From Photorhabdus sp. CRCIA-P01 (GTDB taxonomy: Bacteria > Pseudomonadota > Gammaproteobacteria > Enterobacterales > Enterobacteriaceae), in assembly GCF_003545805.1 (NCBI RefSeq), contig NZ_NMQR01000042.1, forward strand, positions 1-35,851: 35,851 nucleotides of DNA. The letters are read 5' to 3'. Below the pieces are notes generated by a model that was not told the DNA's origin, did not search any database, and saw only the letters and a list, made by a program, of their open reading frames with translations. The position numbers and the translations under genes were made by a program. Shown here one piece after another: positions 1-35,478 of this stretch (the stretch's first letter is position 1; the number at the start of each line of letters is the position of its first letter).

Positions 1-22
1 CCAACAAGTAGCCAACAAGTAG
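1..22. repeat. 11-bp perfect tandem duplication at the window edge
   Basis: Positions 1-11 and 12-22 are the same 11 bases, ccaacaagtag. All other A domains here read YLLD or YLLV at this place, so one copy is expected. Two copies shift the frame: after TLYLL the NRPS1 frame reads Ala-Thr-Cys-Trp instead of Asp/Val. It may be a contig-end or assembly artefact in a highly repetitive gene, or a true frameshift. Confidence 0.9.
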
Positions 23-11400: not shown

Positions 11401-14400
11401 TTCCTGACCGGTTAGATATGTCTGTACTTCGCGGTGCATCACTTCCATCGTTTCATGGTCACCAATCAGATGATGCAGAAGTTGCAAGGCAATCCAACGG
11501 CCATCAGTCTCCTGCGCCACCACAAAGCGCAATAACGGAGCCTCCCCTAGGTCAAGACGATGATGACGCGGATCGAAGCACCGGGTTAACTGGTCACTGA
11601 CCGAGCCGTCAGCTGGGTTCAATGTCAGTTCCGTTACCGACAATTGGGCCTGACGCCAGACCACCTGCACCGGCACTGACAATTCTTGCCAGATAAAGGC
11701 GGTACGTAAGATATCGTGCCGATCAACCGTTCGTTGAACCGCTGCCAGATAACGATCTAATAGAGACCGGTCAGCAAAGGCCATCTGACCTGTCAACAGA
11801 TACGGATCCCCTTCGTTTGCCAGTAAGTGGTGGAACAAAATACCGTCCTGCAACGGCGACAAGGCATAGATATCCTGAATATTGGTCACCCCGCCCGGCA
11901 CCTGCCCGACGATGCGGTCAATGTCAATCTGAGTCAGATCGATCAGCGGCAACATCTCCGGCGTCAGTGCCGTGGTTGCCGGTGTTATGACGTTAGGCGG
12001 CACTATCACCGCCTGGTGCTGTCCCAGTGACTGAGCCAGTTCAAACAACACCGGAAACTGGAACAGATCACGCGCCGTCAGGGTCAATCCCAGATGACGC
12101 AGGCGTTCAACCACTCGTATCGCAAGTAGCGAATGCCCCCCCAGAGCAAAAAAGCTGTCATACCGGCTTATCTGCTCAATCCCCAGTAATTCACGCCAAA
12201 TCGCCGCCAGCGCTATTTCTGTTTCTCCCTGAGGCGCTTCGTAAACTTGACGGGCAAAGGCTTCACTGTCCGGTGCCGGTAGTGCACGACGATCCAGTTT
12301 ACCGTTCGGAGTCAGTGGAAAAGCATCCAGCCGCACAAAGGCTGACGGCACCATATAGTCAGGCAAAATAGCTTGCAGATGAGCACTCAGGCTGTTCACC
12401 AACCCGTCATGGGCTTCCGCCGCCACATAAGCCACCAGCCGTTTATCCTGCCCGTCCCCCCGTGCCAACACCGCCGCTTCACGCACCGTTGAGTGCTCTG
12501 CTAACCGGGCTTCAATTTCCCCGAGTTCAACGCGGAAGCCGCGGATTTTAACCTGTTGATCGTTTCGGCCCAAGAATTCCAGATTGCCGTCCGGCAGATA
12601 GCGGGCCAAATCTCCGGTGCGGTACATGCGAGCATCCGGGTTATCACTGAATGGATCGGTAAGGAAACGCTCGGCGGTCAATTCAGGCCGATTAAGATAA
12701 CCACAGGCAACCCCATCTCCCCCGATATAAATCTCTCCGACTCCCCCTAACGGCACTGGCTGACCATAGGCATCCAACAGATAAACCCGCGTGTTGGCTA
12801 CCGGTCGGCCGATCGGGATATTGGTTGTTCCCGGTGCGACTGCATTGATTCGGTATGTTGCCGTAAAGGTAGTGCCTTCACTTGGCCCATAGCCATTTAA
12901 TAGCTGTTGTGGCGGACTGGTGCGCAGTACCTGACCGACAATATGGGGATCAAGGGCATCTCCGCCGACAATCAGGAACTTTATTTGCGGAAGAACCGGC
13001 GACAGCTCCGCTGCCAGCTGATTAAACAATCCAACACTCAACCACAGAACAGTGATTCGCTGAACCTGTAGATCCTGTACAAACGCCTTCGGTGTCAACA
13101 AAGTAGCATGATCAACAACCACTAACGCGCCACCATTGAGCAACGGTGCCCAGACTTCAAACGTGCTGGCATCGAAAGCCGGATTAGCGGCAAAAGCTAC
13201 CCGGTCATCCGATCCAATTTCAGCATACCCGTTGTTGATGACCAGCCGGACCACCGCACGATGAGGCACCAGAACCCCTTTAGGTGTACCGGTAGAACCG
13301 GAGGTATACATGATATACGCTAACTCAGCGCTAGAACACGGTAAGTCAGGGTTGAGGCAATCTTCCTCTCTATTCGTGTCTGTCTCATCAAAGAGACGCA
13401 ACAGCGGAACAGCCAGGTTAACCGGAATATCATCCCGTGTATCAGTGAGCAACAACCTGGCTGAACAATCACTTATCAGCCAGTTTTTCCGTTCATCCGG
13501 CACATTGGGATCAATCGGCACGTAAACGGCACCCGCTTTGAGAATCGCCAATTGGGCTACCACCAGCTCCAATGAACGCGCTAGCAGAAACGCAACATGA
13601 TCACCGGGACACACTCCTTGTTCGATGAGTTGACGAGCTAACCGATTGGCGCGGGTATTCAGTTCCATATAACTGAAAGTTTTCTCTCCCGCTATCAGTG
13701 CCATTGCCTCTGGGTTTTTCTCTACCTGTTGTTCAAACAACCGATGGATGCATAACGCCTCGGGATACACGGTTTCAGTCGCGTTCCAGGTTTCCAGTAA
13801 CAACCTACGTTCAGCCTCAGGTAACAAATTAAGCTGCCCCACGGGGATTTCATCACTCATCCTTTTTGATGACGCCAACACCTGCAAATGTTCACTCATC
13901 CGCAGAATAACTTCCGGGCTCAGGCGATTTTCATCATAGATCCAGCGAAAGCCGCCCTGTGCATTCATCTGGAACGTCAACAATTCGCCGGATACCGTCT
14001 GAGCACACGATTTGTCATCCTGTATCACAGAAACGGCGATCTGCCACGGTCGGCTTGCTCTTAATTCCGGGATAGACCGCAGTGAAGGAGAACGGGAAAG
14101 AAGATCACGACTAAATGTGCGGTGCCGTGCCAATCGAGCAAGTTCATCATCAACCCAATCAGCTACCACGGAACACGGCTTATCAAACGCCACCTCAACA
14201 ACCATCGGCACCATCGATGACAACCCGGTCAATATATCTGGTTTATCGTTTGCCTCATCCATGCACCAACCGATGTGGAGTTCCGTCTGCTGAGTCAAGC
14301 GCGCAAGATAGATAACGAATACCTGCAACAATGCCTGTAATGGATCTTCTCCAGCGTTTTTTAACAATGGAGGCTGCCAGGGGCTCATTCCCCATCGGGG

Positions 14401-15552
14401 TTCTGCCTGTTTCCCAATCATTTCAAAAGGCAACTGGAGTGGTTGCAACGAGGCAAGACGCTTGTACCAAAATGGTTCACTGGGTGCGAGTGTTTGAAGG
14501 GTATCTTTTACATTCTGAGCCTGCTGTGAGGAAAGCAGAGGCAGCGGTTTACCCGGACTGAGTTCCGATATATCGGCAAGCTCCCTGGCAGACAGCAAGT
14601 GACCTTCAAGGGTGGCGAACCCGCCGATCCGAACATCCTCACTGCCGGTCGTCACCTGCCAGGCATCCTCCTCCACACTAATCAACGTACCGGGTGCCCC
14701 CTCGGAGCACGTGTTCAACCGTTGAAGCCAGGAAATTTGCACCGTGCCCTGTTCGAGTAACAGTTTAGGGCAACCCAATGGATTTAAATAATTTTCCCCA
14801 AAATCTAATGCCCGTACTAAAGCTGACAAGACCTCTCCCGACTGCTCCCAACATAAATATCCCCCCCAATCGGGGCGACGTGACCGAGCATAAAAACTCC
14901 GTTGCGAGAGATCCTGAGGATAAGTCACCAGTGCGTCGCGCCCCAGATTTTTCAGTAGTTCAACAAATCCTTTCTGAGCCGCCTGGTAACATTTCAGATT
15001 CAACGAGAAAGCGTTATCCCGTTCTTCAATCGATACCGGCCATTGCACGGCAATATCGCCGGTATCCACACCGCCTTCAAGACAGTGCCAGGAAATAGCA
15101 TAATGAGTCTCCCGAGCCAACAACGCCCAGGAAGTCGCATGACTGCCCGCATAGCGTGGCAGAGGACTATCATGATAATTAAAAGCATTGCCACGAATTT
15201 GTTCAATGAGCGACCCCGGCAGGATAATTGGGTTGACGATTGAGAAAAGCCAATCGACAGGCTGTGACGTGATATGTTCTTGTAATGCATCAACCGAGTT
15301 CACACAAGCAATCCCTTGCCGAGCAGCCCACGTTTGTAGAACAGTATCAGTAGGTAGCACTGCTTGTATGGTATGCCCTGCCGCCAGAATTTGCTCGGCG
15401 CAGAACACCGCAAGGGTCGTTCCCCCCACCACAACGCATTCTCGTGGTGGAATCAATGTATCATACGTATTATGAGTTATATTTTCACATGACATCTGAG
15501 AGAGAGCTTCGTCTTTAAGAACATTTCCCACTGTAGCAATGTTACCCTTCAT
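1..15552 (-). CDS. NRPS1: giant nonribosomal peptide synthetase with N-terminal formyltransferase domain (3' end outside window)
   Basis: The reading frame is open from an ATG at 15552 to the left edge (5184 codons seen), so the C-terminus, any further modules and the release domain are not visible. The start is supported by TGAGGT five bases upstream and by alignment with the start of NRPS2. Domain order: F (about residues 37-325), C-terminal lobe of a C domain (361-580), A1-T1 (T serine 1141), dual E/C-A2-T2 (Ser2216), dual E/C-A3-T3 (Ser3283), LCL-type C4-A4-T4 (Ser4331), LCL-type C5-A5 (cut). Pocket codes read by alignment to GrsA: DAFWIGGTFK (Val), DAFWIGGTFK (Val), DLFNNALTYK (Ala-like), DLFNNALTYK (Ala-like), DFWNIGMVHK (Thr). 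Inference: the enzyme makes an N-formylated peptide beginning D-Val-D-Val-L-Ala-L-Ala-Thr in the cytoplasm. Photorhabdus has a known 15-module NRPS (KolS, kolossin A); whether this is that gene or a relative cannot be decided from the fragment. The last codons at the edge are disturbed by an 11-bp tandem repeat. Confidence 0.95.
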   Translation of the reverse strand, partial: MKGNIATVGNVLKDEALSQMSCENITHNTYDTLIPPRECVVVGGTTLAVFCAEQILAAGHTIQAVLPTDTVLQTWAARQGIACVNSVDALQEHITSQPVDWLFSIVNPIILPGSLIEQIRGNAFNYHDSPLPRYAGSHATSWALLARETHYAISWHCLEGGVDTGDIAVQWPVSIEERDNAFSLNLKCYQAAQKGFVELLKNLGRDALVTYPQDLSQRSFYARSRRPDWGGYLCWEQSGEVLSALVRALDFGENYLNPLGCPKLLLEQGTVQISWLQRLNTCSEGAPGTLISVEEDAWQVTTGSEDVRIGGFATLEGHLLSARELADISELSPGKPLPLLSSQQAQNVKDTLQTLAPSEPFWYKRLASLQPLQLPFEMIGKQAEPRWGMSPWQPPLLKNAGEDPLQALLQVFVIYLARLTQQTELHIGWCMDEANDKPDILTGLSSMVPMVVEVAFDKPCSVVADWVDDELARLARHRTFSRDLLSRSPSLRSIPELRASRPWQIAVSVIQDDKSCAQTVSGELLTFQMNAQGGFRWIYDENRLSPEVILRMSEHLQVLASSKRMSDEIPVGQLNLLPEAERRLLLETWNATETVYPEALCIHRLFEQQVEKNPEAMALIAGEKTFSYMELNTRANRLARQLIEQGVCPGDHVAFLLARSLELVVAQLAILKAGAVYVPIDPNVPDERKNWLISDCSARLLLTDTRDDIPVNLAVPLLRLFDETDTNREEDCLNPDLPCSSAELAYIMYTSGSTGTPKGVLVPHRAVVRLVINNGYAEIGSDDRVAFAANPAFDASTFEVWAPLLNGGALVVVDHATLLTPKAFVQDLQVQRITVLWLSVGLFNQLAAELSPVLPQIKFLIVGGDALDPHIVGQVLRTSPPQQLLNGYGPSEGTTFTATYRINAVAPGTTNIPIGRPVANTRVYLLDAYGQPVPLGGVGEIYIGGDGVACGYLNRPELTAERFLTDPFSDNPDARMYRTGDLARYLPDGNLEFLGRNDQQVKIRGFRVELGEIEARLAEHSTVREAAVLARGDGQDKRLVAYVAAEAHDGLVNSLSAHLQAILPDYMVPSAFVRLDAFPLTPNGKLDRRALPAPDSEAFARQVYEAPQGETEIALAAIWRELLGIEQISRYDSFFALGGHSLLAIRVVERLRHLGLTLTARDLFQFPVLFELAQSLGQHQAVIVPPNVITPATTALTPEMLPLIDLTQIDIDRIVGQVPGGVTNIQDIYALSPLQDGILFHHLLANEGDPYLLTGQMAFADRSLLDRYLAAVQRTVDRHDILRTAFIWQELSVPVQVVWRQAQLSVTELTLNPADGSVSDQLTRCFDPRHHRLDLGEAPLLRFVVAQETDGRWIALQLLHHLIGDHETMEVMHREVQTYLTGQEESLPDPVPFRNLVAQARLGVSQEEHTRFFSEMLAAVDEPTLPFGLTEVHRDGSRVTESHRMLAPELNERLRGQARRLGVSLAALCHLAWAQVLSRTSGQEQVVFGTVLFGRMQAADGADNGMGLFINTLPLRLDIDETPVWESVQAAHSQLAGLLAHEHASLALAQRCSGVASGTPLFSALLNYRHNALSATSNELIGGIEFLGVQERTNYPLVLSVEDFGDALGLTAQVVQPFEPERVCGYMQQTLESLVEALEQAPDMPIRALEILPEAERTLLLTTWNATETVYPDQLCIHQLFEQQVEKTPDAVALVYEEQTLGYAELNARANRLARQLIEQGVCPGDHVALLLARSMELVIAQLAILKAGAVYVPIDPSVPDERKNWLISDCAARLLLIDTQGDIPVDLAVPLFRFSDESDTGREGDRFNLNLPRSSTELAYIMYTSGSTGIPKGVLVPHRAVVRLVINNGYAEIRPDDRVAFAANPAFDASTFEVWAPLLNGGALVVIDHATLLTPLEFVQVLQIQRMTVLWLSVGLFNQLAEELSPVLPRIRLLIVGGDALDPHVIGQVLRTNPPQQLLNGYGPSEGTTFTTTYRINAVAPGATNIPIGRPVANTRVYLLDIYGQPVPLGVVGEIYVGGDGVAYGYLNRPELTAECFLVDPFSDNPDARLYRTGDLARYLPDGNLEFLGRNDQQVKIRGFRIEPKEIEARLAEYPTVREVAVLVQGEGQNKRLVAYVVESADDGLVDSLHTHLSTILPDYMVPTAFVRLDAFPLTPNGKLDHRALPAPDNEMVARQVYAEPQGETEIALAAIWRELLGIEQISRYDSFFALGGHSLLAVRMIGRLRHLGLTLTARDLFQSPVLSDLAQTLGQHQAVKVPPNIITSATTELTPTMLPLIDLTQADIDCIVGQVPGGVANIQDIYALSPLQDGILFHHLLENEGDPYLLISQMAFADRNLLDRYLAAVQRVVDRHDILRTAFIWQGLSIPAQVVWRQATLSVTELTLNPVDGPVSDQLTRRFDPRQHRIDLREAPLLRFVAAQETDGRWILLQLLHHLIGDHETMEVMHREVRAYLAGQEESLPAPAPFRNLVAQARLGMSQEEHTRFFTDMLAEVEEPTLPFGLTEVHRDGSQVAESHRMLAPELNSRLRSQARRLSVSLATLCHLAWAQVLARTSGQDQVVFGTVLFGRMAVGDGADNGMGLFINTLPLRLDMDDTPVRDSVQTAHTRLAGLLAHEHASLALAQRCSGVQGEIPLFNSLLNYRHNTLPVTSDDLISGIEFLGAQERTNYPLMLSVEDFGDALGLTAQVVRPFNPENLCGYMQQALESLVTALEQAPEMPVRQLEILSEAERTLLLTTWNATEAAYPDQLCIHRLFEQQVDQTPDAAALVYQEQTLSYAELNACANRLAHQLIAQGVVPDQRVAICVTRSPAMVVGLLAVMKAGGAYVPLDPTYPGARLAHILTDAAPAVVLADKAGWSALGEEALAGLTVLDPNTLPDQSDSNPRVPGLTSRHLAYVIYTSGSTGVPKGVMIEHRNTVNFLYWAQQTFETEEIRKVLFSTSMNFDLSIFECFMPLSRGAAIYLVEDALSLMRHALPVTLINSVPSAMKPLLQARALMASVHTVNLAGEPLKDALIEQIFEDTQIQRLCNLYGPSETTTYSAWLPIQRGDRIIESIGRPIANTCLYLLDEYGQPVPLGVVGEIYIGGAGVARGYLNRPDLTAERFLIDPFSDVANARMYRTGDLARYLPDGNLEFLGRNDQQVKIRGFRIEPGEIESRLVEHPAVSESVVLAQGEGQEKRLVAYVVAEAHEGLVNSLHTYLGAMLPDYMVPSAFVRLDGFPLTPNGKLDRQALPAPDNEAVARQVYEAPQGEMEMALAAIWREVLGVEQISRYDNFFALGGHSLLAVRVMNRVAALGIELPLTTLFKSPSLRAFAEAMQTRQEQPDTILPAIVPISREGELPLSFAQQRLWFLAQLEGVSETYHIPMALRLCGELDIMAWQKALDTLFARHEALRSVFVSVDGQPQVRLLAPDSGLLLSQYDLRGVPDADRVLERLSVEEAHASFDLDSGPLIRACLIRIADDEYQFLLTQHHIISDGWSANVLVQELNSLYTAFMAGQSNPLPSLAIQYPDYAAWQRQWLSAERIQVQSDYWRAMLVDAPVLLDLPTDWPRPSEQLFAGQAVPINLDVALTTALKRLSEQQGVTLFMTLLSAWAIVLSRLSGQEDVVIGTPSAGRSRREVEPLIGFFVNTLALRMDLSGELTVTELLARVRQTALAAQEHQDLPFEQVVEIVQPPRRLAHTPLFQVMFAWQNNESTEWGLPGLAVSPVDQAVDVVKFDLELNLLEEEGGIVGALSYATALFDPTTMERQVGYLHAVLQAMVANPQQPVGEIDILSPAERRLLLETWNATATAYPDALCVHQLFEQQVEKTPEAMALVCEGWTLGYAELNARANRLAHQLITLGVEPDQRVAICVSRSPAMVVGLLAVMKAGGAYVPLDPTYPGGRLTHILTDAAPAVVLADKAGRVALSEEALAGLTVLDPNTLPDQPDGNPQVPGLTSRHLAYVIYTSGSTGVPKGVMVEHRNTVNFLYWAQQAFETEEIRKVLFSTSINFDLSIFECFVPLSRGAAIYLVDDALSLMQHALPVTLINSVPSAMKPLLQARALMASVHTVNLAGEPLKGALIEQIFEKTQIQRLCNLYGPSETTTYSAWLPIQRGDRIIESIGRPIANTCLYLLGEYGQPMPLGVVGEIYIGGAGVARGYLNRPDLTAERFLVDPFSGVQDARMYRTGDLARYLPDGNLEFLGRNDQQVKIRGFRIEPREIEARLVEHPAVSESVVLAQGDGQEKRLVAYVVAEAHEGLINSLREHLSIQLPDYMVPSAFMRLDAFPLTPNGKLDRQALPAADNEAVARQIYEAPQGETEMALAAIWREVLGIEQISRYDNFFALGGHSLLAVRVMNRVAALGVELPLTTLFKSPSLKAFAEVMQAQQEQPDTILPAIVPISREGELPLSFAQQRLWFLAQLEGVSETYHIPMALRLRGQLDIMAWQKALDTLFARHEALRSVFISIEGQPQVQLLAPDSGLRLSQHDLRGLPDAERVLERLCGEEARASFNLERGPLIRAGLIRLTDDEYWFLLTQHHIVSDGWSANVLIQELNTLYTAFMDGQSDPLPPLVIQYPDYAAWQRQWLLAERTQLQSDYWRAILADAPVLLDLPTDRPRPLEQSFVGHAVPVNLDPALTTALKRLSEQHGVTLFMTLLSAWAVVLSRLSGQDDVVIGTPSAGRSRQEVESLIGFFVNTLALRVDLSGELTVTELLARVRQTALAAQEHQDLPFEQVVEIVQPPRRLAHTPLFQVMFAWQNNESTAWQLPGLAVSPVDQVSDIDIVKFDLELNLSEEEGRIVGALSYATALFDQSTIERQVGYLHAVLQEMVAHAQQRIGEIDILAQAERRLLLETWNATETIYPDQLCIHQLFEQQVEQTPDAIALVYEDQTLSYAELNARANRLAHQLIALGVVPDQRVAICVSRSPAMVAAVLAVLKAGGAYVPLDPVYTGERLTHILTDAAPAILLADKAGRAALDEKTLAALTVLDPNTLPEQPDSNPQVPVLNARHLAYVIYTSGSTGMPKGVMVEHRNIQRLFEATESWYHFNRQDIWCLLHSIAFDFSVWELWGALRYGAKLVLVPHAIARSPQELHQFVCQHGITVLNQTPSAFKAFIASYVDNPLPDQLRYIIFGGEALDPGMLRPWYRLREETSPRLVNMYGITETTVHVTYRELSPHDVAQITSPIGTRIPDLTLYLLATCW
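2455..5589 (-). other. NRPS1 module 4: LCL-type C, A4 (Ala-like), T4
   Basis: This C domain is a different type from those in modules 2 and 3: it starts LPLSFAQQRLWFLAQLEG and has the canonical HHIISDGWS motif without the elongated N-terminal His motif. It is therefore an ordinary LCL domain joining two L residues. A4 has the same code as A3 (D-L-F-N-N-A-L-T-Y-K) and T4 has Ser4331. Residue 3 should stay L. Confidence 0.8.
5590..8790 (-). other. NRPS1 module 3: dual E/C, A3 (Ala-like), T3
   Basis: The condensation domain again shows the dual E/C signature (FHHLLENEGD) and so should epimerise residue 2. A3 has FDLSIFECF and CNLYGPSETTTY, giving the code D-L-F-N-N-A-L-T-Y-K, which I recall as an alanine code. 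T3 has Ser3283. The stretch around A3 is almost identical to that of A4, 3144 bp away. Confidence 0.8.
8791..12012 (-). other. NRPS1 module 2: dual E/C, A2 (Val), T2
   Basis: The condensation domain has FHHLLANEGD near its start, which fits the HH[I/L]xxxxGD signature of dual epimerisation/condensation domains, and the later active-site motif HHLIGDH. It should convert residue 1 to the D form before condensation. A2 carries the valine code D-A-F-W-I-G-G-T-F-K, identical to that of A1, and T2 has Ser2216. The A1 and A2 pocket regions are nearly the same sequence, so the two modules look like a recent duplication. The spacing between equivalent residues of modules 1 and 2 is 1075 residues. Confidence 0.85.
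12013..14472 (-). other. NRPS1 module 1: half-C, A1 (Val), T1
   Basis: The module opens at FWYKRL (residue 361) with about 220 residues that match only the C-terminal lobe of a condensation domain; no HHxxxDG motif precedes it, so it cannot condense. A1 (about 595-1090) has the FDASTFEVW and AYIMYTSGSTG cores and the code D-A-F-W-I-G-G-T-F-K, which is the classical valine code of gramicidin S and tyrocidine synthetases. T1 carries GGHSLL with Ser1141 for phosphopantetheine. It acts as the starter, loading valine for formylation by the F domain. Confidence 0.85.
14578..15444 (-). other. NRPS1 formyltransferase (F) domain
   Basis: Residues about 37-325 resemble methionyl-tRNA formyltransferase in both its N-terminal catalytic part and its C-terminal part. 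A Rossmann-like start (ECVVVGG) is followed by the catalytic motif FNYHDSPLPRYAG with Asn125 and His127, then GGVDTGDI with Asp163; these match the Asn/His/Asp triad of formyltransferases. Known family members fused to NRPS initiation modules, such as the linear gramicidin LgrA F domain, use 10-formyl-tetrahydrofolate to formylate the amino group of the first T-bound residue. By analogy this domain should formylate the first valine. NRPS2 lacks the domain although its flanking sequence is otherwise colinear. Confidence 0.9.
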
Positions 15553-15678
15553 TTATTACCTCAACGAATCTGTTAGAAATTTGAAAACTGTCATACCTGA
15601 CAGCCATCACCCATATTTCTTTCTCACTTCTTGCCCCCAAGAAATAAAAACGGACATATCCGACATCAATTCAAAATA
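15553..15678 (-). repeat. Duplicated leader, copy upstream of NRPS1
   Basis: These 126 bases align without gaps to 33134-33259 upstream of NRPS2, with about 8 mismatches by hand count. It ends next to the start codon with a strong Shine-Dalgarno (TGAGGT, five-base spacer). Such conservation in an otherwise AT-rich, drifting spacer suggests retained regulatory function or recent duplication. I cannot place a convincing -10/-35 pair: TTGATG with TATTTC at 17 bp is conserved in both copies but is a poor match. Beyond this block the two spacers show weaker, patchy similarity. Confidence 0.85.
15588..15643. promoter_or_regulatory. Two conserved inverted repeats in the NRPS1 leader
   Basis: CTGTCA-tacc-TGACAG lies at 15588-15603 and TTCTTG-cccc-CAAGAA at 15628-15643; both have perfect 6-bp arms and 4-base centres. 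Both recur at the same distance from the start codon in the NRPS2 leader. In the first, three of the four centre positions or fewer differ between copies while the arms are unchanged. They could be operator half-sites for a dimeric regulator or short RNA hairpins near the ribosome binding site; the sequence alone does not tell which. Confidence 0.5.
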
Positions 15679-28700: not shown

Positions 28701-31700
28701 CGAAGCAGCGGAACAGCCAAGTTAGCCGGAATCTCCGTCTGTGTATCGGTGAGCAGCAACCGAGCGGCACAATCATTTATCAGCCAGTTTTTCCGTTCAT
28801 CCGGCACACTGGGATCAACCGGTACGTAAACCGCACCGGCTTTAAGAATCGCCAACTGGGCCACCACCAGTTCTATCGATCGCTCTAACAGGAGCGCAAT
28901 ATGATCACCGGGATAAACCCCTTGTTCGATTAACTGATGAGCCAACCGGTTAGCACGCGTATTCAGTTCCATATAACTTAGCGTTTTATCTCCGGCTATC
29001 AGCGCCGTCGCCGCTGGAGTTTTCGCCACCTGCTGTTCAAACAACTGATGGACACATAACTGATCAGGATAGACGGTTTGCGTGGCGTTCCAGGTTTCCA
29101 GCAACAAGGTACGCTCCGCTTCCGGCAGGATGTCCAATACCCGAACGGGCATTTCTGGGGCTTGCTCCAAGGCTTCCACCAGACTCTCCAGTGCCTGTTG
29201 CATATAACCGCATAGGCTTTCCGGATCAAACGGCTGCACGACCTGAGCCGTCAGGCCCAGCGTAGAGCCACCGTCCTCCACTGACAGCACAAACGGATAG
29301 TTAGTTCGCTCCTGTTCGCCCAAGAATTCAATCCCGGCCATCGTTTCATCCAAAGGATCTGGCTGTTCATTATGGCGATAGTTCAACAGAGCACTAAAGA
29401 GTGGCACACCGCTGTCAACCCCACTGCATCGTTGAGCCAATGCCAACGGAGCATGCTCATGCTCCAACAACCCGGCCAGTCGCAGATGCACCTCCCGCAC
29501 ACTGTCCTGTACCGGGGTCTCATCGATATCCAGCCGCAGCGGTAGAGTATTGATAAACAACCCCATCCCTTCCCCCACGGCCATGCGCCCAAACAGGACG
29601 GTACCAAACACCACTTTCTCCTGCCCACTGGTGCGCGATAACACCTGCGCCCAAGCCAGATGACACAACGCCGCCAGACTGACGCCCAAACGCCGGGCCT
29701 GACCGCGCAGACGGTTATTTAGCTCAGGAACTAACATCCGGTGAGATTCGGTCTTCTGAGATCCATCACGATGCACACCCGTCAGCCCGAACGGCAGCGT
29801 GGGTTCATCCACTGCCGCCAACATGTCGGTGAAGAAACGGCTATGCGCTTCCTGACTCACCCCAAGCCGAGCCTCAGCCACCAGATTACGGAACGGCACC
29901 GGAGCAGGTAGGCACGCCTCCTGTCCGGCAAAATAAGCCTGCACTTCACGGTGCATCACTTCCATCGTTTCATGGTCACCAATCAAGTGATGCTGTAATT
30001 CCAGTAAAAACCAGCGGCCATCGGTTTCCTGAGCGATAACAAAATGCAGTAGCGGCGCCTGACTCAAGTCAAGACGATACCAAGCAGGATCAAAACGCCG
30101 AGTTAACTGGTCAATCACTGGACCGTCAGCTGGATCCAGCGTCAGTTCCGTCACGGGCAACCGGGCCCGACGCCAGACCACCTGCGCCGGCACGGATAAT
30201 CCTTGCCAGACAAACGCCGTCCGCAGGATGTCATGGCGATCAACCACCTGTTGCACCGCCGCCAGATAACGGTCCAGCAAAGACCGATTAGCAAAAGCCA
30301 CCGGATAGAGCACCAGATAGGGGTCACCTTCCTGTTCCAACAGGTGGTGGAACAAGATACCGTCCTGTAACGGCGACAACGCATAGATATCCTGAATATT
30401 CGTTATCCCACCCGGTACCTGCTCGACGATGCGGTCAATGTCAGTCTGAACCAAATCAATCAGCGGTAACATCGCCGGCGTCAGCGCCGTGGTTGTCGGC
30501 GTGATGACGTTAGGCGGGACTATCACAGCCTGATGCTGTCCCAACGTTTGAGCCAATGCTGACAGCACCGGCGACTGGAACAGATCACGTGCCGTCAGTG
30601 TCAAACCCAGGTAGCGCAAGCGCTCAATCATCTGTACGCCGAGTAGGGAATGACCGCCCAATGCAAAGAAACTGTCATGCCGGCTGATGTGTTCAATGCC
30701 CAATAATTCACGCCAGATGTCCGCCAGCGTGATCTCAGCCTTCCCTTGTGGGGCTTCATAAATCTGACGGGCAAAATCGTTTTCCCCGGGCGCAGGCAAC
30801 GCCCGACGATCCAGCTTACCGCTCGGAGTCTGTGGGAAGGTATCCAGCCGCACAAAGGCCGCCGGCACCATATAGTCAGGCAAAATCGCACTCAGGTATT
30901 CACGCAAATCAGCCGCCAATCGCTCATTCGCTTCCGCCTCCACATAAGCCACCAGCCGTTTGCCCAGATCGCCATCCAGTGCCAACACCGCCGCCTCTCG
31001 TACCGCCGGGTGTTCCGTCAGTCGGGTTTCAATTTCCCCCAGTTCAATCCGAAAACCGCGAATTTTAACCTGCTCATCGTTACGGCCCAGAAATTCCAGG
31101 TCACCGTCCGGCAGGTAGCGGGCTAAATCCCCAGAGCGATACATCCGTTCACCAGATAGCGGACTAAAAGTATCCAACATAAAACGTTCCACACTCAACG
31201 CCGGCCGGTTCAGATAACCTCGTGCCACACCCACGCCACCAATATACATCTCGCCCACGCCACCTACCGGTACCAGTTCGCCATATTTGTCCAGCAGGTA
31301 GATGCGGGCATTTTTAGCCGGTCTGCCGATAGAACGGGCATCCTCCGGCGATAACACATCCTTATAGGTCACCGTCACGGTGTTTTCCGTCGGGCCATAA
31401 CCATTCAACAACCGAGGCCGGTGGCCGGCTTGTCTAAACCAGTCCTGAATAGCACTCTTTTTCACCGCCTCACCCCCAATGATGATGAGCCGGAGACAAT
31501 CCGGCAGCGGTAATCCATTGTCTCTGGCGGCCAGTTCAGACCAGAATAAAGTCGGCAGTGACATCACCGTAATACGATATTGCCGGGTTAAGGCAACAAA
31601 TTCTGGTATCGACGCCAGCCAGCTATCATCCCGGATCACCAGTGTGGCGCCGTTGCATAATGACGAGAAGAAATCTTCCACTGAAACATCAAACGCAAAC

Positions 31701-33133
31701 GCGGCAAATTGCAATACCCGGTCTTGTGCGGTGACGGCATAGGTGTCATTAAAACCCAGATAACGTTGATAAATCGCCTGATGTTCCACCATTACCCCTT
31801 TCGGCTGCCCGGTTGAGCCGGAGGTGTAAATCACATAGGCCAGATGCTGTGGCGTTAACGCCGGGATCTGCGGATTGCTGTCGGGCTGGTCAAGTTGGAT
31901 ATTCGGATCAAGTACCGTCATGCCTACCAGCGCCTGTTCGCCCAGCGCCACCCGGCCAGCTTCATCAACCAGTACCACTGACGGGGCACTATCACTCAGA
32001 ATATACGCCAGACGCTCCCGCGGATAAGTTGAATCCAGCGGCACATAAGCCCCGCCGGCTTTCAGTACCGCCAGCAAAGCCACCACCATTGCCGGTGAGC
32101 GTGCCACACAAATCGCCACCCGCCGATCCGGTGTGACACCTAGCGCAATCAGTTGATGAGCCAGCCGGTTAGCACGGATATTCAATTCCGCATAACTGAG
32201 GGTCTGTTCTTGATATTCTAATGCCGTGGCGTGCGGGGCTTGCTCTGCCTGTTGTTCAAACAATTGATGAATACATAATGGGTCAGGATAAGGGGTATCC
32301 GTGGCATTCCAGGTTTCCAGTAACAGGGTACGTTCAGCCTCCGATAACACATTAAGCTGCCAGATAGGAACTTCCTCTCCCTGCCTTTTTGACGCTGCCA
32401 GCATCTGTAAATGTTCACCCATGCGCAGAACCACTTCCGTGCTCAGGCGATTTTCATCGTAGATCCAACGAAAACCGCCCTGCGCATTGATTTGGAGGGT
32501 CAGCAATTCGCCGGGCGCCGGCTGATCACACGGCCTATCCTCCGCGATGGCAGCAACGGCGATCCGCCATGGCCGGTGGGTTGTCAACGCCGGAATAGCC
32601 CACAATGAAGGAGAACGCGAGAGGAGATCTCGACTAAATGTGTGGTGCCGGGCCAACCGGGCCAGCTCGCCATCCAGCCAGTTAGCTACCACATACCACG
32701 GTTTATCAAACGCCACCTCAACGACCATTGGCACCACCGATGCCAGCTCTGACGACGTATCGCTTACGCCATCCACACACCAACCCATTTGGAATGTCGC
32801 CTGCTGAGTCAAACGCGCAAGATAGATAACGAATGCCTGTAACAACGTTCGCAGCGGCTCTTCTTCACCATTTTTTGGCAATGGGGAGTGCCAGTCACTG
32901 ATTACCCAGTAGGGTTCCGCTTGCTCTCCGGCGGTTTCGAAAGGTAATTGAAGGGGTTGCAAAGCAGCAAGGCGTTCATACCAGAATGATTCATTGGAAG
33001 TAAACGTCTGGGGAATATTCTTTACATTCTGAGTCGGTGGTAAAGTGTCATTTACGTTGGTTATATTTTCTGACGTCTGAGAGAGGAGTTCAGCTTTAAA
33101 GGCACTTCCTGCTTGAGCAATGCTATCTTTCAT
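16760..33133 (-). CDS. NRPS2: complete five-module nonribosomal peptide synthetase with thioesterase
   Basis: A complete 5457-residue synthetase. The ATG at 33133 has TGAGGT five bases upstream and matches the NRPS1 start. Domain order: C-terminal lobe of a C domain (about 50-265), A1-T1 (Ser829), then four repeats of dual E/C-A-T (Ser1900, Ser2977, Ser4052, Ser5130), then a thioesterase (about 5180-5450; GYSSGG with Ser5257, His5427). All four internal condensation domains carry HHL-xxxx-GD and HHLIGDH, the dual E/C type, so residues 1-4 should be D. Pocket codes by hand: DVESIGGVTK, DAFWIGATFK (Val-like), DVEFIGAVTK, DAFWIGATFK (Val-like), DVSACGCITK. Glu at position 239 in modules 1 and 3 suggests basic residues; module 5 is unassigned. 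Inference: the product is a pentapeptide, X-Val-X-Val-X, released as a free acid or a ring. It is not the GameXPeptide enzyme, whose product needs Leu/Phe codes. A Rho-independent terminator follows the stop. Confidence 0.97.
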   Translation of the reverse strand: MKDSIAQAGSAFKAELLSQTSENITNVNDTLPPTQNVKNIPQTFTSNESFWYERLAALQPLQLPFETAGEQAEPYWVISDWHSPLPKNGEEEPLRTLLQAFVIYLARLTQQATFQMGWCVDGVSDTSSELASVVPMVVEVAFDKPWYVVANWLDGELARLARHHTFSRDLLSRSPSLWAIPALTTHRPWRIAVAAIAEDRPCDQPAPGELLTLQINAQGGFRWIYDENRLSTEVVLRMGEHLQMLAASKRQGEEVPIWQLNVLSEAERTLLLETWNATDTPYPDPLCIHQLFEQQAEQAPHATALEYQEQTLSYAELNIRANRLAHQLIALGVTPDRRVAICVARSPAMVVALLAVLKAGGAYVPLDSTYPRERLAYILSDSAPSVVLVDEAGRVALGEQALVGMTVLDPNIQLDQPDSNPQIPALTPQHLAYVIYTSGSTGQPKGVMVEHQAIYQRYLGFNDTYAVTAQDRVLQFAAFAFDVSVEDFFSSLCNGATLVIRDDSWLASIPEFVALTRQYRITVMSLPTLFWSELAARDNGLPLPDCLRLIIIGGEAVKKSAIQDWFRQAGHRPRLLNGYGPTENTVTVTYKDVLSPEDARSIGRPAKNARIYLLDKYGELVPVGGVGEMYIGGVGVARGYLNRPALSVERFMLDTFSPLSGERMYRSGDLARYLPDGDLEFLGRNDEQVKIRGFRIELGEIETRLTEHPAVREAAVLALDGDLGKRLVAYVEAEANERLAADLREYLSAILPDYMVPAAFVRLDTFPQTPSGKLDRRALPAPGENDFARQIYEAPQGKAEITLADIWRELLGIEHISRHDSFFALGGHSLLGVQMIERLRYLGLTLTARDLFQSPVLSALAQTLGQHQAVIVPPNVITPTTTALTPAMLPLIDLVQTDIDRIVEQVPGGITNIQDIYALSPLQDGILFHHLLEQEGDPYLVLYPVAFANRSLLDRYLAAVQQVVDRHDILRTAFVWQGLSVPAQVVWRRARLPVTELTLDPADGPVIDQLTRRFDPAWYRLDLSQAPLLHFVIAQETDGRWFLLELQHHLIGDHETMEVMHREVQAYFAGQEACLPAPVPFRNLVAEARLGVSQEAHSRFFTDMLAAVDEPTLPFGLTGVHRDGSQKTESHRMLVPELNNRLRGQARRLGVSLAALCHLAWAQVLSRTSGQEKVVFGTVLFGRMAVGEGMGLFINTLPLRLDIDETPVQDSVREVHLRLAGLLEHEHAPLALAQRCSGVDSGVPLFSALLNYRHNEQPDPLDETMAGIEFLGEQERTNYPFVLSVEDGGSTLGLTAQVVQPFDPESLCGYMQQALESLVEALEQAPEMPVRVLDILPEAERTLLLETWNATQTVYPDQLCVHQLFEQQVAKTPAATALIAGDKTLSYMELNTRANRLAHQLIEQGVYPGDHIALLLERSIELVVAQLAILKAGAVYVPVDPSVPDERKNWLINDCAARLLLTDTQTEIPANLAVPLLRFSDETDTSKEEDCLNLDLPHSSADLAYIMYTSGSTGTPKGVLVPHRAVVRLVINNGYAEIGQDDRVAFTANPAFDASTFEVWAPLLNGGALVVIDRATLLTPPELVRVLQAHHITVLWLTIGLFNRLAAELSSVLPQIKILIFGGDIPDLQVIAQVLNNRPPQQLLQAYGPSEGTTFTTMYPIVALAQGVTRIPIGRPIANTRIYLLDAYGLPVPSGAIGEIYVGGDGVACGYLNRPAQTAERFLTDPFSDQPDARMYRTGDLARYLPDGNLEFLGRNDQQVKIRGFRIEPGEIETRLVEHPVVREAAVLVLGDGPDKRLVAYVVAEAHEGLAISLRDHLSAILPDYMVPTAFVRLDIFPLTPNGKLDRRALPAPDNEALARQVYAAPQGETEMALAAIWRELLGIEQVSRHDSFFALGGHSLLAVRMVEHLRHLGLTLAVRDLFQSPVLFELAQTLGQHPVMVVPPNVITSATTKITPEMVPLIDLTQAEIDRIVGQVPGGITNIQDIYALSPLQDGILFHHLLANEGDPYLVVSQMAFADRSLLDRYLAAVQQVINRHDILRTAFIWQGLSVPAQVVWRQASLLVTELTLDPVDGPVSDQLARRFDPRHYRLDLAQAPLLRFVVAQETDGRWWLLELQHHLIGDHTTMKVMNREVQAYLAGQGNSLPDPAPFRNLVAQARLGVSQDAHIRFFTDMLAEVDEPTLPFGLADVHRDGSQEIASHRMLTTNLNDRLRSQARRLGVSLAALCHLAWAQVLSCTSGQEKVVFGTVLFGRMAAGEGVDNGMGLFINTLPLRLDIDDTPVRDSVQAVHTRLAGLLEHEHASLALAQRCSGVASGTPLFSALMNYRHNDQLDPLDETIDGIEFLGEQESTNYPFGMSVEDDGATLGLIAHVVQPFDPESLCDYMQQALESLVEALEQAPETPVRALNILPETERTLLLETWNATESPYPDALCLHQLFEQQVEKTPDATALVYQEQTRSYAELNACANRLAHQLIAFGVTPDQPVAICVARSPTMVVALLAVLKAGGAYVPLDPTYPGERLTYILNDTAPSVVLADATGQAALGDEALAGLTVLDPNIQPDLPDSNPRVPELTPQHLAYIIYTSGSTGQPKGVMVEHQAVYQRYLGVNELYAVTEQDRVLQFAAFAFDVSVEECFSSLCNGATLVIRDDSWLASMPEFIALARQNRITVMFLPTLFWSELAARDNGLPLPDDLRLIIIGSEAVKRNAIQDWFRQETYPLQLLNAYGPTENTVTATCKAILSPEDDRSIGRPIRNTRIYLLDRHGQPVPLGCVGEMYIGGVGVARGYLNRLTLSEERFIPDPFNPVSDARMYRTGDLARYLPNGELEFLGRNDQQVKIRGFRVELGEIETRLVEHPAVQEAAVLALDDELGKRLVAYVVAEAHEGLTAGLREHLCAVLPDYMIPAAFVRLDSFPQTPNGKLDRRALPAPGEAAFARQVYEAPQGKRETMLAAVWCELLGVEQISRHDSFFALGGHSLLAVRMIERLRRVGLGVSVQTLFQHPTLRVLAQSLVQHDEIQVPDNRITPETTVLTPEMLPLIDLTQPDIDYIVGQVPGGMANIQDIYALSPLQDGILFHHLLENEGDPYLLISQMVFADRALLDRYLVAIQRTIDRHDILRTAFIWQGLSVPAQVVWRQAPLSVTELTLNSADGPVSDQLTRRFDPAQYRLDLSQAPLLRFVIAQETDGRWLLLELHHHLIGDHETMEVMHREVQAYLTGQEESLPAPAPFRNLVAQARLGVSQEEHTRFFTEMLAEVGEPTLPFGLTEVHRDGSQVTESHRRLTSTLNDRLRNRARHLGVSLAALCHLAWAQVLSCTSGQENVVFGTVLFGRMQAGNGADNGMGLFINTLPLRLDIDETPVRDSVQAAHTRLAGLLAHEHASLALAQQCSGIASGTPLFSALLNYRHNALSATSDELISGIEFLDAQERTNYPFVLSVEDFGESLGLTAQVVQPFDPESLCGYMQQALESLVEALEQTPETPIRALNILPETERTLLLETWNATETAYPDALCIHQLFEQQVEKTPVATALIAGDKTLSYTELNTCANRLAHQLIEQGIRPDDHVAILLERSMELVVAQLAILKAGAVYVPVDPSMPDERKHWLISDCSARLLLTDARTDIPANLTIPLLRLSDEKNANREQDRINPDLPRSSTELAYIMYTSGSTGTPKGVLVPHRAMVRLVINNGYANIGPEDRVAFTANPAFDASTFEVWAPLLNGGALVVIDHATLLTPPELVLALQAHRITVLWLTIGLFNRLAAELSPILPQIKILIFGGDIPDLQVIAQILDNRPPQQLLQAYGPSEGTTFTTMYPIEALPQGATRIPIGRPIANTRVYLLDAYGQPVPSGVIGEIYVGGDGVAQGYFNRPELTAERFLVDPFSDDPEARMYRTGDLARYLPDGNLEFLGRNDQQVKIRGFRIEPGEIEARLVEHPVVREAAVLALGDGPDKRLVAYVVAPADDGLVNSLRDHLSKILPDYMVPSAFVRLEAFPLTSNGKLDRRALPAPDSEAVARQVYSAPQGETEMALAAIWRELLGMEQVSRYDSFFALGGHSLLAVRMIERLRHLGLTLAARDLFQSPVLSDLAQTLGQHQAVIVPSNVITPETTALTPEMLPLIDLTQTDIDRIVGQVPGGVANIQDIYALSPLQDGILFHHLLANAGDPYLLTGQMVFTERTLLDRYLAAVQQVINRHDILRTAFIWQGLSVPAQVVWRQASLSVTELTLDLADGSVSGQLTERFDPRHHRLDLSEAPLLRFVVAQERDGRWIVLQLLHHLIGDHTTLDVMNREVQAYLDGQQESLPTPVSFRNLVAEVRLGVNQEAHIRFFTEMLAEVDEPTLPFGLTEVHRDGSQVTESQRMLAPELNDRLRSQARRLGVSLAALCHLAWAQVLSRTSGQEQVVFGTVIFGRMAVGKGVDSGMGLFINTLPLRLDIDDTPVRDSVQAAHNRLAGLLEHEHASLALAQRCSGVQDGVPLFSALLNYRHNEQPDPLDETMDGIEFLGAQEFTNYPFALSVEDFGDALGLTAQVVQPFEPERVCGYMQQALESLVEALEQTPETPVRTLNILPEIESTLMLKTWNAPETAAYLDPWCIHQLFEQQVEKTPDATALMYETQTFSYAELNARANRLAHQLIALGVEPDQRVAICVARSPAMVVGLLAVLKAGAAYVPLDPDYPGERLTHILADVSPVILLADDVGRAVLGENALTGLTVFDPNTLPDQPDSNPQRPELTSQHLAYVIYTSGSTGTPKGVMVEHRQLVSQITSLNTKWSFNASDRLLQFCNPSFDVCASEIFCAITQGAQLVLRTNQWILSAQEFWRLCESYKITYIAIPAQFWRIISDVHEGDIYQGLRMICIGGEAISDHELQRWLSAHRESPVLVNCYGPTEATITTTISCLNEMAGQANIIGRPLPNTRVYLLDAQGQPIPLGAVGELYVGGAGVARGYLNRPELTTEYFLADPFSDNPEARMYRTGDLARYLPDGNLEFLGRNDQQVKIRGFRVEPGEIEARLVEHPAVSQSVVLAQGEGQDKRLVAYVVAPADEGLANSLRTHLSAILPDYMVPSAFVRLDAFPLTPNGKLDRRVLPEPDNEAFAHQAYEAPQGETETVLAAIWCELLGIEQVSRYDNFFALGGHSLLAMRMMNLAAGRGLIFTLNALFQFPVLSELASKITSDLLSRPQSEAISVRPDGIGLPLFFVPSGMGDYSYVFGLAQHIPSGYPIYALPWPSIHEESMSTMEEQAARMITLMKAVQPVGPYRISGYSSGGILAYAIVQRLLGAGERVNFLGLIDTPAPHYFGKEAMQPKYHFFTELARQLGEEYKEEIAVLYRRIDELNLVRFIEAAQALALYPVSLCADVIAKHWEQIEHYAQMVADYEPPALAITLHQFYAVEPSPAISFVTDEKSESVNIEPSLGWERVMPDTSLKLIAIPGNHFSLLEDNENKTALAQVLNRALTINYDKEAS
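16784..17596 (-). other. NRPS2 type I thioesterase domain
   Basis: About residues 5180-5450. PLFFVPSGMG is followed by the nucleophile motif GYSSGG (Ser5257), LIDTPAP with a likely catalytic Asp, and GNHFSLLED with His5427. It takes the peptide from T5 and releases it by hydrolysis or cyclisation; the sequence does not say which. Confidence 0.9.
17630..20869 (-). other. NRPS2 module 5: dual E/C, A5 (unassigned), T5
   Basis: The dual E/C domain shows FHHLLANAGD. A5 has FDVCASEIF and NCYGPTEATITTTI, giving D-V-S-A-C-G-C-I-T-K, which I do not recognise. Its pocket-bearing core (about 18400-18880) is unlike any other A domain here, while its flanks match the A4/A5 type of NRPS1. T5 has Ser5130. 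The residue it adds is not epimerised by a later domain and should remain L. Confidence 0.7.
20870..24094 (-). other. NRPS2 module 4: dual E/C, A4 (Val-like), T4
   Basis: The dual E/C domain shows FHHLLENEGD. A4 repeats A2 closely and has the same code D-A-F-W-I-G-A-T-F-K. T4 has Ser4052. Equivalent residues of modules 2 and 4 lie 2152 residues apart, and those of modules 1 and 3 lie 2148 apart, so modules 1-2 and 3-4 look like a duplicated bimodule. Confidence 0.8.
24095..27319 (-). other. NRPS2 module 3: dual E/C, A3 (basic residue?), T3
   Basis: The dual E/C domain shows FHHLLANEGD. A3 is a close relative of A1 (for example FDVSVEECF against FDVSVEDFF, and the same CNGATLVIRDDSWLAS) but the code is D-V-E-F-I-G-A-V-T-K: Ser278 becomes Phe and Gly322 becomes Ala. 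Glu239 is kept, so a positively charged side chain is still the first guess, though possibly a different one from module 1. T3 has Ser2977. Confidence 0.75.
27320..30529 (-). other. NRPS2 module 2: dual E/C, A2 (Val-like), T2
   Basis: The dual E/C domain shows FHHLLEQEGD and HHLIGDHE. A2 gives D-A-F-W-I-G-A-T-F-K, one change (Gly322 to Ala) from the classical valine code that is intact in NRPS1. The change could slightly narrow the pocket but valine remains the best call. T2 has Ser1900. Confidence 0.8.
30530..32986 (-). other. NRPS2 module 1: half-C, A1 (basic residue?), T1
   Basis: It starts at FWYERL (residue 50) with a C-terminal-lobe-only condensation remnant like that in NRPS1. A1 has FDVSVEDFF and NGYGPTENTVTVTY, giving D-V-E-S-I-G-G-V-T-K. 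The D-x-E-S-I-G pattern is shared with the bacitracin lysine code (DAESIGSVCK), so a basic residue such as lysine is the best guess; this is a hand reading with modest certainty. T1 has Ser829. No F domain precedes it, so the N-terminus of the peptide should be free. Confidence 0.75.
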
Positions 33134-33259
33134 TTACGACCTCAACGAATCTGTTAGAAATTTGAAAACTGTCATTTCTGACAGCCATCACCCATATTTC
33201 TTTCTTACTTCTTGCCCCCAAGAAATAAAAACCGACACATCTGACATCAATTCAAAATA
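33134..33259 (-). repeat. Duplicated leader, copy upstream of NRPS2
   Basis: Ungapped partner of the NRPS1 leader at 15553-15678. Differences cluster in the hairpin centre (tttc against tacc), in the two bases near the start codon and in three positions of the distal palindrome CGGACATATCCG, which is intact only in the NRPS1 copy. Confidence 0.85.
33169..33224. promoter_or_regulatory. Two conserved inverted repeats in the NRPS2 leader
   Basis: CTGTCA-tttc-TGACAG lies at 33169-33184 and TTCTTG-cccc-CAAGAA at 33209-33224. Arms are identical to those in the NRPS1 leader and sit at the same distance from the start codon. A shared regulator or RNA structure would make the two synthetases respond together. 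Confidence 0.5.
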
Positions 33260-34416: not shown

Positions 34417-34503
34417 CCTTAATTGCATCGGCAAAGTTTTTACTTTATTACATAACCAACATTCACTATTTAATTACTTAAATCAGTAATAGTAGTAATG
34501 GCT
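34417..34503. repeat. 87-bp direct repeat, copy 1
   Basis: Nearly identical to 35486-35572 (one mismatch seen, gcatcggc against gcatcagc). The unit contains the last codons and stop of one paralogue (encoding SHYYYY) plus the spacer and ribosome binding site of the next gene. The two copies are 1069 bp apart, the length of one gene unit. Confidence 0.9.
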
Positions 34504-35478
34504 TAATAAACAATGCCTATCAGGCAAAACCCTTCCTTTACTGGAATTCCCATCCAATGAATTAGCCTTGATTTCTTTAAGCTTCTTCTTCGTGAACTGT
34601 TGAAGATTAACTTCCGTAGGATTAGGCAAGTCTAATGCAGAGAAAATCTCTTCTGCCAATCTGAATGTGGGTTTAGGATTTCTCATGCAAGAAAAATATA
34701 TAAATGGTGAAAGTATTCCTGCCGCCAAAATGCAGAAAAAACATACGTATTTCATATATTCGATAATATCCATTTTCACAAAAAAGACATCTATCATCAT
34801 GTAAAAAAACATGAAAAATAAAAAGCAATACCAATTACCACGTACCTGATATTTGGCATTTGAATGAATACCTTGTTTACAACGCGGTGTCATCGATATC
34901 ACCCTTAATTCAGGATGCGCAATGGCATAAACCACATAATGTCCCTCTTGTTCTGTCACCGCTAATTCAACGTAATCACCCACTTTTGCTATGGTAAAAC
35001 CCAGCCAACCGTAAAACGGGACGCCATTAATTTTCCCCCGAACAAAATCACAAACATCACTCCTCCTATCTTCGGTTTGTGAAGTTATTGCCGCCCCTGC
35101 ACTATTTCCTGCCATTGCCAACAATAACGCTCCAAACTGATTCCGCTCCTCTTTCCTAGCAAAAGCGACCGGATCATATTCCCGATCGGTAAAATAGCCT
35201 ATGACACACAGGGTTTCGAATTCTTCCAATACACCACTCACTTTAATTAATGGTTTACAGGGAGGTAATTCCGGCGGCGGCGGTTCTTTTGCTAATATTG
35301 CATCCAGTTCGGGGATTTTTTCTTTTGTTTTTGCAATCTCCTTTTCTGCCTCTTCTCTGCCTTCTGGATGGCTTACTATCCAGTCAAGGTTAACTTCAAT
35401 CCATGTATCAAGACTGCTTCTCTGACTTTTTATTTCTTCAAAGTCAATAGCCTCTTTGTAAGGACGAAAGGTACTCAT
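34483..35478 (-). CDS. Putative type VI secretion system effector-like membrane protein
   Basis: 331 residues from ATG at 35478, with AAGGA six bases upstream. Residues 1-66 are charged and probably helical (EEAEKEIAKTKEKIPELDAI). Residues 71-82 read LPPCKPLIKVSG, the hallmark opening of a family that databases label 'putative type VI secretion system effector', followed by a beta-rich soluble part (VRGKINGVPFYGW, GDYVELAVTE). Two hydrophobic helices follow (about 216-234 and 241-263), then a soluble tail with LAEEIFSALDLPNP and a Lys-rich segment, ending SHYYYY. I assign the family from memory of its motifs; a toxic activity has not been shown by anything in the sequence. No immunity gene or T6SS structural gene is visible nearby. 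A paralogue lies directly upstream. It is unrelated in function to the NRPS genes as far as can be seen. Confidence 0.75.
   Translation of the reverse strand: MSTFRPYKEAIDFEEIKSQRSSLDTWIEVNLDWIVSHPEGREEAEKEIAKTKEKIPELDAILAKEPPPPELPPCKPLIKVSGVLEEFETLCVIGYFTDREYDPVAFARKEERNQFGALLLAMAGNSAGAAITSQTEDRRSDVCDFVRGKINGVPFYGWLGFTIAKVGDYVELAVTEQEGHYVVYAIAHPELRVISMTPRCKQGIHSNAKYQVRGNWYCFLFFMFFYMMIDVFFVKMDIIEYMKYVCFFCILAAGILSPFIYFSCMRNPKPTFRLAEEIFSALDLPNPTEVNLQQFTKKKLKEIKANSLDGNSSKGRVLPDRHCLLSHYYYY

What the first reader, a model, noticed from the sequence alone, without database searches (positions are those of the whole stretch)
14505..15460. Formyltransferase domain present in one of two tandem paralogous synthetases, with clean junctions
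NRPS1 and NRPS2 share their first ~35 residues and then the sequence from QNVK into the half-C domain. In NRPS1 an F domain of about 920 bp lies between DTLIPP and QNVK; in NRPS2 the same place is a short linker (DTLPPTQNVK). The re-entry point is shared even at DNA level (CTCAGAATGTAAA in both). The pair captures a gain or loss of an initiating F domain in frame, which naturally marks where such a domain joins an NRPS.
Basis: partly seen in the sequence, partly recalled or inferred. Interest (0 to 1): 0.7.

Follow-up and report, generated by a model that had tools for sequence, protein, structure and literature searches.

The report
Peptide synthetase that lost its formyltransferase
Two neighbouring Photorhabdus peptide-assembly enzymes share the same start, but one keeps a formyl-adding domain that the other lacks, and relatives in other bacteria suggest that the version with the domain is the older one.

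Summary
NRPS1 (window 1-15552, minus) and NRPS2 (16760-33133, minus) share 5'UTR DNA (112 of the last 120 bp), a leader of about 35 residues and a condensation C-lobe ("half-C"). Only NRPS1 has a 309-residue formyltransferase (F) block between leader and half-C. In 12 Photorhabdus genomes, 17 F-bearing and 31 F-less genes share this start. The best reading is loss of F in the NRPS2 lineage: F joined to half-C by a linker of fixed length occurs in many phyla; half-C searches outside the genus gave 8 F-bearing, 2 F-less and 7 C-FC-half-C places; and the ancestor of the Photorhabdus group is reconstructed as F-bearing (P 0.97-0.99). Trees do not settle how many losses or swaps happened inside the genus, and F-less half-C genes outside this phylum were not surveyed. 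The two window genes are paralogues, not sister copies, and the exact re-entry point is uncertain by a few residues. Most novel: in seven loci the F C-terminal subdomain plus half-C follow a full condensation domain instead of F, so the pair may be a common mount for N-capping domains. Function is inferred; nothing was assayed.

The parts
15445..15552 (-). NRPS1 leader, residues 1-36
   Evidence: start shared with NRPS2 and other genus copies
14908..15444 (-). F domain, catalytic N-subdomain, residues 37 to about 215; Asn125, His127, Asp163
   Evidence: Pfam Formyl_trans_N; N and H in 91 of 91, D in 82 of 91 F-bearing rows; catalytic role recalled from Fmt/ArnA
14530..14907 (-). F domain, C-terminal subdomain (FC), residues about 216-341
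   Evidence: Pfam Formyl_trans_C, borderline; boundary approximate
14467..14553 (-). F-to-half-C linker, residues 334-362, of fixed length across phyla
13768..14517 (-). NRPS1 half-C (condensation C-lobe), residues 346-595
12526..13737 (-). NRPS1 first adenylation domain, 81% and 79% identical to NRPS2 A2 and A4
15553..15672 (-). NRPS1 5'UTR stretch shared with NRPS2 (112/120), with hairpin CTGTCA-N4-TGACAG
33032..33133 (-). NRPS2 leader, residues 1-34, no F after it
32294..33031 (-). NRPS2 half-C, residues 35-280
33134..33253 (-). NRPS2 5'UTR stretch shared with NRPS1
31043..32260 (-). NRPS2 first adenylation domain, 79% identical to NRPS2 A3

Best explanation
An ancestral Photorhabdus NRPS gene began leader - F (formyltransferase, N and C subdomains) - half-C - A1 - T1. 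NRPS1 keeps this state: F is expected to move a formyl group from formyl-tetrahydrofolate to the amino group of the first residue on T1, so that the peptide starts N-formylated, as described for kolossin A. In the lineage of NRPS2 about 310 codons of F were deleted in frame between the leader and the F-to-half-C linker. The half-C stayed, as a relic or as a brace that shapes the first A domain, and F-less genes multiplied in the genus. NRPS2 therefore starts its peptide with a free amine. Shown: anatomy, shared flanks, wide spread of F-half-C, direction by reconstruction. Inferred: catalysis, products, role of half-C, the deletion event.
For: Shared UTR, leader and half-C with F in one gene only. 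Of 80 named loci from many phyla, 77 have F followed at once by half-C in one frame; these were found by F motifs and ranked with half-C in the query, so they are not a fair census. The fairer test is half-C searches that did not ask for F: outside the genus 8 F-bearing places (in one a stop codon lies in the linker), 2 F-less, 7 with C-FC-half-C. The F-less L209 (G807) is nested at 99/84 beside an F-bearing Bradyrhizobium hipponense gene and keeps linker residues RRPILSDDQVQSISAADE, with no F found in the 1.5 kb held upstream. Mk reconstruction of the ancestor of 49 core rows: F-bearing, P 0.99 (equal rates) and 0.97 (unequal), at least 0.93 in 30 of 30 sampled bootstrap trees; with outgroups from half-C searches only, P 0.9995, at least 0.95 in 30 of 30, the core being one clade in 23 of these 30. 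F and half-C trees agree on Mycetohabitans as nearest F-bearing outsider.
Against: AU tests reject neither F-bearing core genes as one clade (p 0.275), nor F-less core genes as one clade (0.378), nor the F-less core plus L097 (0.178); the same holds for the F-less genes in the DNA tree (0.245), where the kolossin group lies among F-less genes (80/92) and two changes are needed. L097, F-less and from another genus, stands on a long branch next to the core group. Only 12 of 29 F-less genes keep SQQ of the linker. 25 of 27 outgroup rows carry F, but many were chosen through F. A truncated N-terminal C domain without F is already described in a starter module of Thermoactinomyces (ThdA, PMC7253712, passages), and F-less half-C outside this phylum was not surveyed. 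Mk ignores recombination.
Confidence: 0.78

Rival explanations
1. F was gained: an F-less leader-half-C gene received F by in-frame insertion, giving the NRPS1 type.
For: AU tests do not exclude F-bearing core genes as one clade; F-less genes are more numerous in the genus (31 against 17); one near outgroup, L097, is F-less; F-less truncated C domains in starter modules exist elsewhere.
Against: Core ancestor reconstructed as F-bearing with either outgroup set; F and half-C have the same nearest F-bearing outside relative; the F-half-C joint is the same in many phyla.
Confidence: 0.1
2. F is swapped in and out repeatedly by homologous recombination between paralogues through the shared UTR/leader and half-C flanks, so that losses and re-gains both occurred inside the genus (compatible with an F-bearing ancestor).
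For: Both flanks are shared within one genome; DNA and protein half-C trees disagree on the kolossin group; the first A domain breaks ranks with F state in a few genes (L012, L064, L066, L080).
Against: F state needs only 2 changes on the DNA tree and 4 on the 76-row protein tree, outgroup losses included. No formal recombination test was run.
Confidence: 0.2
3. Separate fusions made the two genes and the similar flanks are convergent or chance.
For: Leaders are short.
Against: Leader and UTR recur across the genus with the same layout.
Confidence: 0.01

Closest known systems
Kolossin A synthetase (plu2670, Photorhabdus laumondii TT01)
   Same: Leader, F, linker and half-C alike: the G007 gene of 16367 aa (80% to the NRPS1 query over residues 9-349) fits the 49.1-kb, 15-module plu2670 of PMC4381043 (passages); that G007 is TT01-like is my inference. 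F-domain formylation in kolossin: PMC8949500 (passages).
   Different: A separate gene with other modules, lying next to NRPS2. PMC4381043 lists plu2670 from A-T on, naming neither F nor half-C in the passages seen.
Linear gramicidin synthetase LgrA initiation module
   Same: N-terminal F before A and T; NRPS1 F matches LgrA F.
   Different: No room for a half-C: in LgrA the F match ends at residue 161 and the A match begins at 205; in NRPS1 385 residues lie between the matched stretches.
Ririwpeptide synthetase (plu3123)
   Same: Probable identity of NRPS2: five modules, 5457 aa as in G007, 87% over its first 263 residues, A domains in the pattern A1~A3, A2~A4, A5 apart, which fits R-I-R-I-W as I read the name. 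plu3123 as ririwpeptide gene: PMC9177418 (passages).
   Different: plu3123 itself was not compared; the product of the window gene is unknown.
ThdA starter module with truncated N-terminal C domain (thermoactinoamide, Thermoactinomyces)
   Same: A truncated C domain, called probably inactive, before the first A domain with no F; the authors suggest that it may influence A-domain selectivity (PMC7253712, passages).
   Different: Other phylum; sequence not compared here, so common origin is untested.
Starter-C initiation modules
   Same: Seven loci in other genera of the family carry full C - FC - half-C - A with the same FC-half-C pair.
   Different: The head is a condensation domain, not a formyltransferase.

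Membership tests
Formylating NRPS initiation module (LgrA/kolossin type) | Formyl transferase domain at the N-terminus of the first module | tested here: met
   NRPS1: PF00551 5e-14, PF02911 borderline
Formylating NRPS initiation module (LgrA/kolossin type) | Asn-His-Asp residues of formyl-THF transferases present | tested here: met
   N125, H127, D163 in NRPS1; their role is recalled
Formylating NRPS initiation module (LgrA/kolossin type) | F linked directly to A as in LgrA | tested here: not met
   half-C lies between; kolossin-type genes have the half-C too
Formylating NRPS initiation module (LgrA/kolossin type) | Product carries an N-formyl group | not testable with these tools
   needs mass spectrometry
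Ririwpeptide synthetase (NRPS2) | Five-module orthologue of plu3123 with matching A-domain pattern | tested here: inconclusive
   size, identity to G007 and A pattern fit; plu3123 not compared directly
Condensation domain (half-C) | C-lobe of the C-domain fold | tested here: met
   hhalign E 9e-7 over columns 183-435 of 435; PDB matches
Condensation domain (half-C) | HHxxxDG active site of the N-lobe | tested here: not met
   N-lobe absent; Pfam Condensation only E 0.088 for the NRPS1 half-C

The most novel reading that the evidence does not exclude
FC-half-C is a conserved mounting adaptor of NRPS initiation modules: different N-capping enzymes (formyltransferase core or starter condensation domain) plug in upstream of it, and the head can be dropped, switching a synthetase between formylated, acylated and free-amine starts at a natural seam of fixed length.
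Probability: 0.42. Interest if true: 0.68.

Novelty: new variant of a known kind. Interest (0 to 1): 0.5.

Why it matters
N-terminal capping decides whether a nonribosomal peptide starts blocked or with a free amine, which for instance limits head-to-tail cyclisation (general knowledge). This pair, among 48 genes with the same start in 12 genomes of one genus, shows evolution removing such a cap while the reading frame of the rest is kept. The half-C was not called by Pfam in the NRPS1 pieces scanned, so annotations that start at A miss it. The fixed seam between F and half-C is a natural place to test in NRPS biochemistry.

Tried and rejected
Chance or separate fusion: rejected by the shared non-coding UTR. 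Recent tandem duplication of NRPS1/NRPS2: not supported by the trees. Excision of F between NVKNIP-like repeats: kolossin-type leaders have NNVKNIP before F and QNVKDI after it, but P. asymbiotica-type leaders have NNVNNTP/NNVNNIP there, so I read it as the leader's own residues; no junction mechanism is shown. 'Most F-less relatives re-enter at SQQxQNVK', my first wording, is wrong: 12 of 29. Link of F loss with the type of the first A domain: best match to NRPS2 A1/A3 in 25 of 28 F-less genes (26 with L080, which matches at 67% only) against 1 of 19 F-bearing ones (Fisher 5e-9), but the tree holds only 1-2 independent pairs, so this shows no cause; calling that type Arg rests on the ririwpeptide name. 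Substrate codes by motif came out incomplete and are not used. Structure of the F-half-C piece (A3) was never run. Rfam: no match in the window at gathering scores.

Rows dropped: of 129 distinct half-C sequences (91 F-bearing, 7 C-FC, 31 F-less) one search used 70; 59 were left out (24 mostly rhizobial rows, the broken L046, 34 far rows). One search used 61 rows, one search used 76, one search used 52, the F tree used 41, the DNA tree used 47. The UTR alignment used 38 of those 47 genes. Of the 80 named loci, L154, L168 and L171 did not show F and half-C together in one frame.


Full report
What is there. The window is contig C146 of a 5.3-Mb genome in 208 contigs. NRPS1 (1-15552, minus, 5184 aa, cut by the contig edge) reads leader, F, half-C, A-T-C-A-T-C-A-T-C-A-T-C and part of a fifth A. 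NRPS2 (16760-33133, minus, 5457 aa) reads leader, half-C, five A-T units with four C domains, and a tail that I read as a thioesterase.

Observation. Aligning the first 1500 and 600 bp shows the shared leader, the NRPS1-only block and re-entry at CTCAGAATGTAAA. From DTLIPP to QNVK the block is residues 37-345, 927 bp. Pfam calls Formyl_trans_N (5e-14) and, just over its cut-off, Formyl_trans_C in the 517-aa piece; in the 2600-aa piece only Formyl_trans_N is listed. The 120 bp before the two ATGs are 112/120 identical.

Half-C. Pfam hardly sees it (Condensation E 0.088). Its profile aligns to columns 183-435 of a 435-column profile of the window's own full C domains (probability 91%, E 9e-7). 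The model of NRPS2 residues 1-289 (mean pLDDT 80.9, leader below 60) matches C domains in the PDB (best Txo1, TM 0.60 over the query). So it is the C-lobe without the HHxxxDG lobe.

Genus survey. In 12 genomes one search found 31 F-less places with this start, among them two broken ones (G008:C2:1008733, whose start lies in a separate 76-aa frame, and a 143-aa fragment at G006:C38:18155) and one with masked bases at its start (G008:C2:991114). One search found 17 F-bearing places at 75% identity or more, in 10 of 12 genomes; five more at 42-49% are apart. The order NRPS2-NRPS1 recurs in G001, G003, G006 and G009 (positions).

Linker. Of 91 F-bearing rows, 90 have Gly at one fixed distance before FW and 66 have LP with 22 residues between it and FW; the F model ends 3 residues before half-C in 76 rows, 2-8 in the rest. 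Of 29 F-less core rows, 12 keep SQQ and 11 keep QNVK exactly; NRPS2 has LPPTQNVK.

Outside the genus. In 77 of the 80, F and half-C adjoin in one frame. Searches by half-C are the fairer test: family, 392 genomes, E 1e-8; class, 369, E 1e-20; phylum, 398, E 1e-15. Outside the genus they gave 8 F-bearing places (G396; G446, G590, G455; G956 four times, in one of which, L211, a stop codon lies in the linker), 2 F-less (G387 L097, G807 L209) and 7 in which half-C follows FC and a C domain (G097, G105, G174 twice, G282, G345, G401). Stretches fetched for 5 of these 7 show the C domain near the start of the open frame; for L101 and L110 the start was not fetched. Pfam, run on two of them, calls Condensation in both and Formyl_trans_C in one (L221, over cut-off), not in L220; FC in the others rests on my own F profile (54-76 bits). 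L209 keeps linker residues and shows no F in the 1.5 kb held upstream; I did not identify its start codon, so it may be a broken gene. In the 76-row tree it is nested among F-bearing rhizobial genes (99/84).

Trees. (70 rows): the 29 F-less core genes form one clade (83/86) among F-bearing ones. (76 rows): the kolossin and P. asymbiotica F-bearing groups branch first (96/86 and 96/98), the rest of the core is unresolved. Against this: (61 rows) leaves the core open, and AU tests reject neither F-bearing (p 0.275) nor F-less (0.378) core genes as one clade, nor F-less with L097 (0.178); the DNA tree puts the kolossin group among F-less genes (80/92; AU for one F-less clade 0.245). Core ancestor by Mk: F-bearing, P 0.99/0.97, minimum 0.93 over 30 bootstrap trees; with outgroups from half-C searches only, 0.9995, minimum 0.95, the core being one clade in 23 of 30. 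The F tree has the same nearest F-bearing outsider, Mycetohabitans.

Function. Asn125 and His127 are invariant in 91 of 91 F-bearing rows, Asp163 is kept in 82; NRPS1 has all three. L012 is also the one F-bearing gene whose first A domain is of the NRPS2 A1 type. This would fit decay before deletion, but it is a single case.

Literature. All papers were seen as passages only. PMC8949500: only three peptides formylated by an F domain were known to its authors (anabaenopeptilides, linear gramicidin, kolossin A). PMC7253712: a truncated, probably inactive N-terminal C domain in the starter module of ThdA, which may influence A-domain selectivity; so a half-C starter without F is known. PMC10212144 mentions a truncated C domain in a fungal NRPS. 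PMC4381043, PMC9177418, PMC6972681, PMC11547657, PMC10587159, PMC8097286, PMC1894796 and PMC2717986 were used as cited or gave nothing further. Searches for F with a partial C domain, or for F gain or loss, listed none whose title or abstract start treats this; the listed papers were mostly not opened, and subscription papers, including the kolossin paper, were not seen.

Verdict. A real in-frame F difference; loss in the NRPS2 lineage is the best reading (0.78), with swapping inside the genus open. New variant of a known kind. The boldest point, that FC-half-C also follows full C domains, rests on seven loci.

Noticed in passing
L219, L220, L221, L222, L223 (G345, G105, G174, G097, G282); L101, L110: C domain - FC - half-C - A: the F C-terminal subdomain plus half-C follow a condensation domain instead of the formyltransferase core. 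C near the start of the open frame in the five fetched further; Pfam Formyl_trans_C over its cut-off in L221 but not found in L220.
   Followed up: partly
L086 2697-4532 minus (G000:C46); L087, L088; L103: Free-standing F-half-C frames of 574-622 aa with no A domain found; in three Photorhabdus genomes the gene follows an NRPS end and a transporter-like gene. Neighbours of L103 not looked at. Possibly acts in trans.
   Followed up: partly
L074 (G007) and L012/L124 (P. tasmaniensis): F domains with Asn in place of Asp163, perhaps inactive.
   Followed up: partly
window 15553-15672 and 33134-33253 (minus); alignment A5: Conserved 5'UTR before F-bearing and F-less genes; fold z-score -4.1 for the NRPS1 copy; a hairpin with 10 predicted pairs kept mostly through G-U changes, one pair with changes on both sides; no Rfam match in the window.
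   Followed up: partly
L209 (G807) and L211 (G956): In one rhizobial genus, a half-C frame without F but with linker residues, and one with a stop codon between F and half-C.
   Followed up: partly
window 34483-35478 minus: Protein matching NCBIfam NF041560, putative type VI secretion effector (1.5e-63), beside NRPS2.
   Followed up: no
L217 (G387): F-less half-C NRPS frame of 1503 aa followed by transposase-like frames (IS21-like by eye, recalled) and a further NRPS piece.
   Followed up: no
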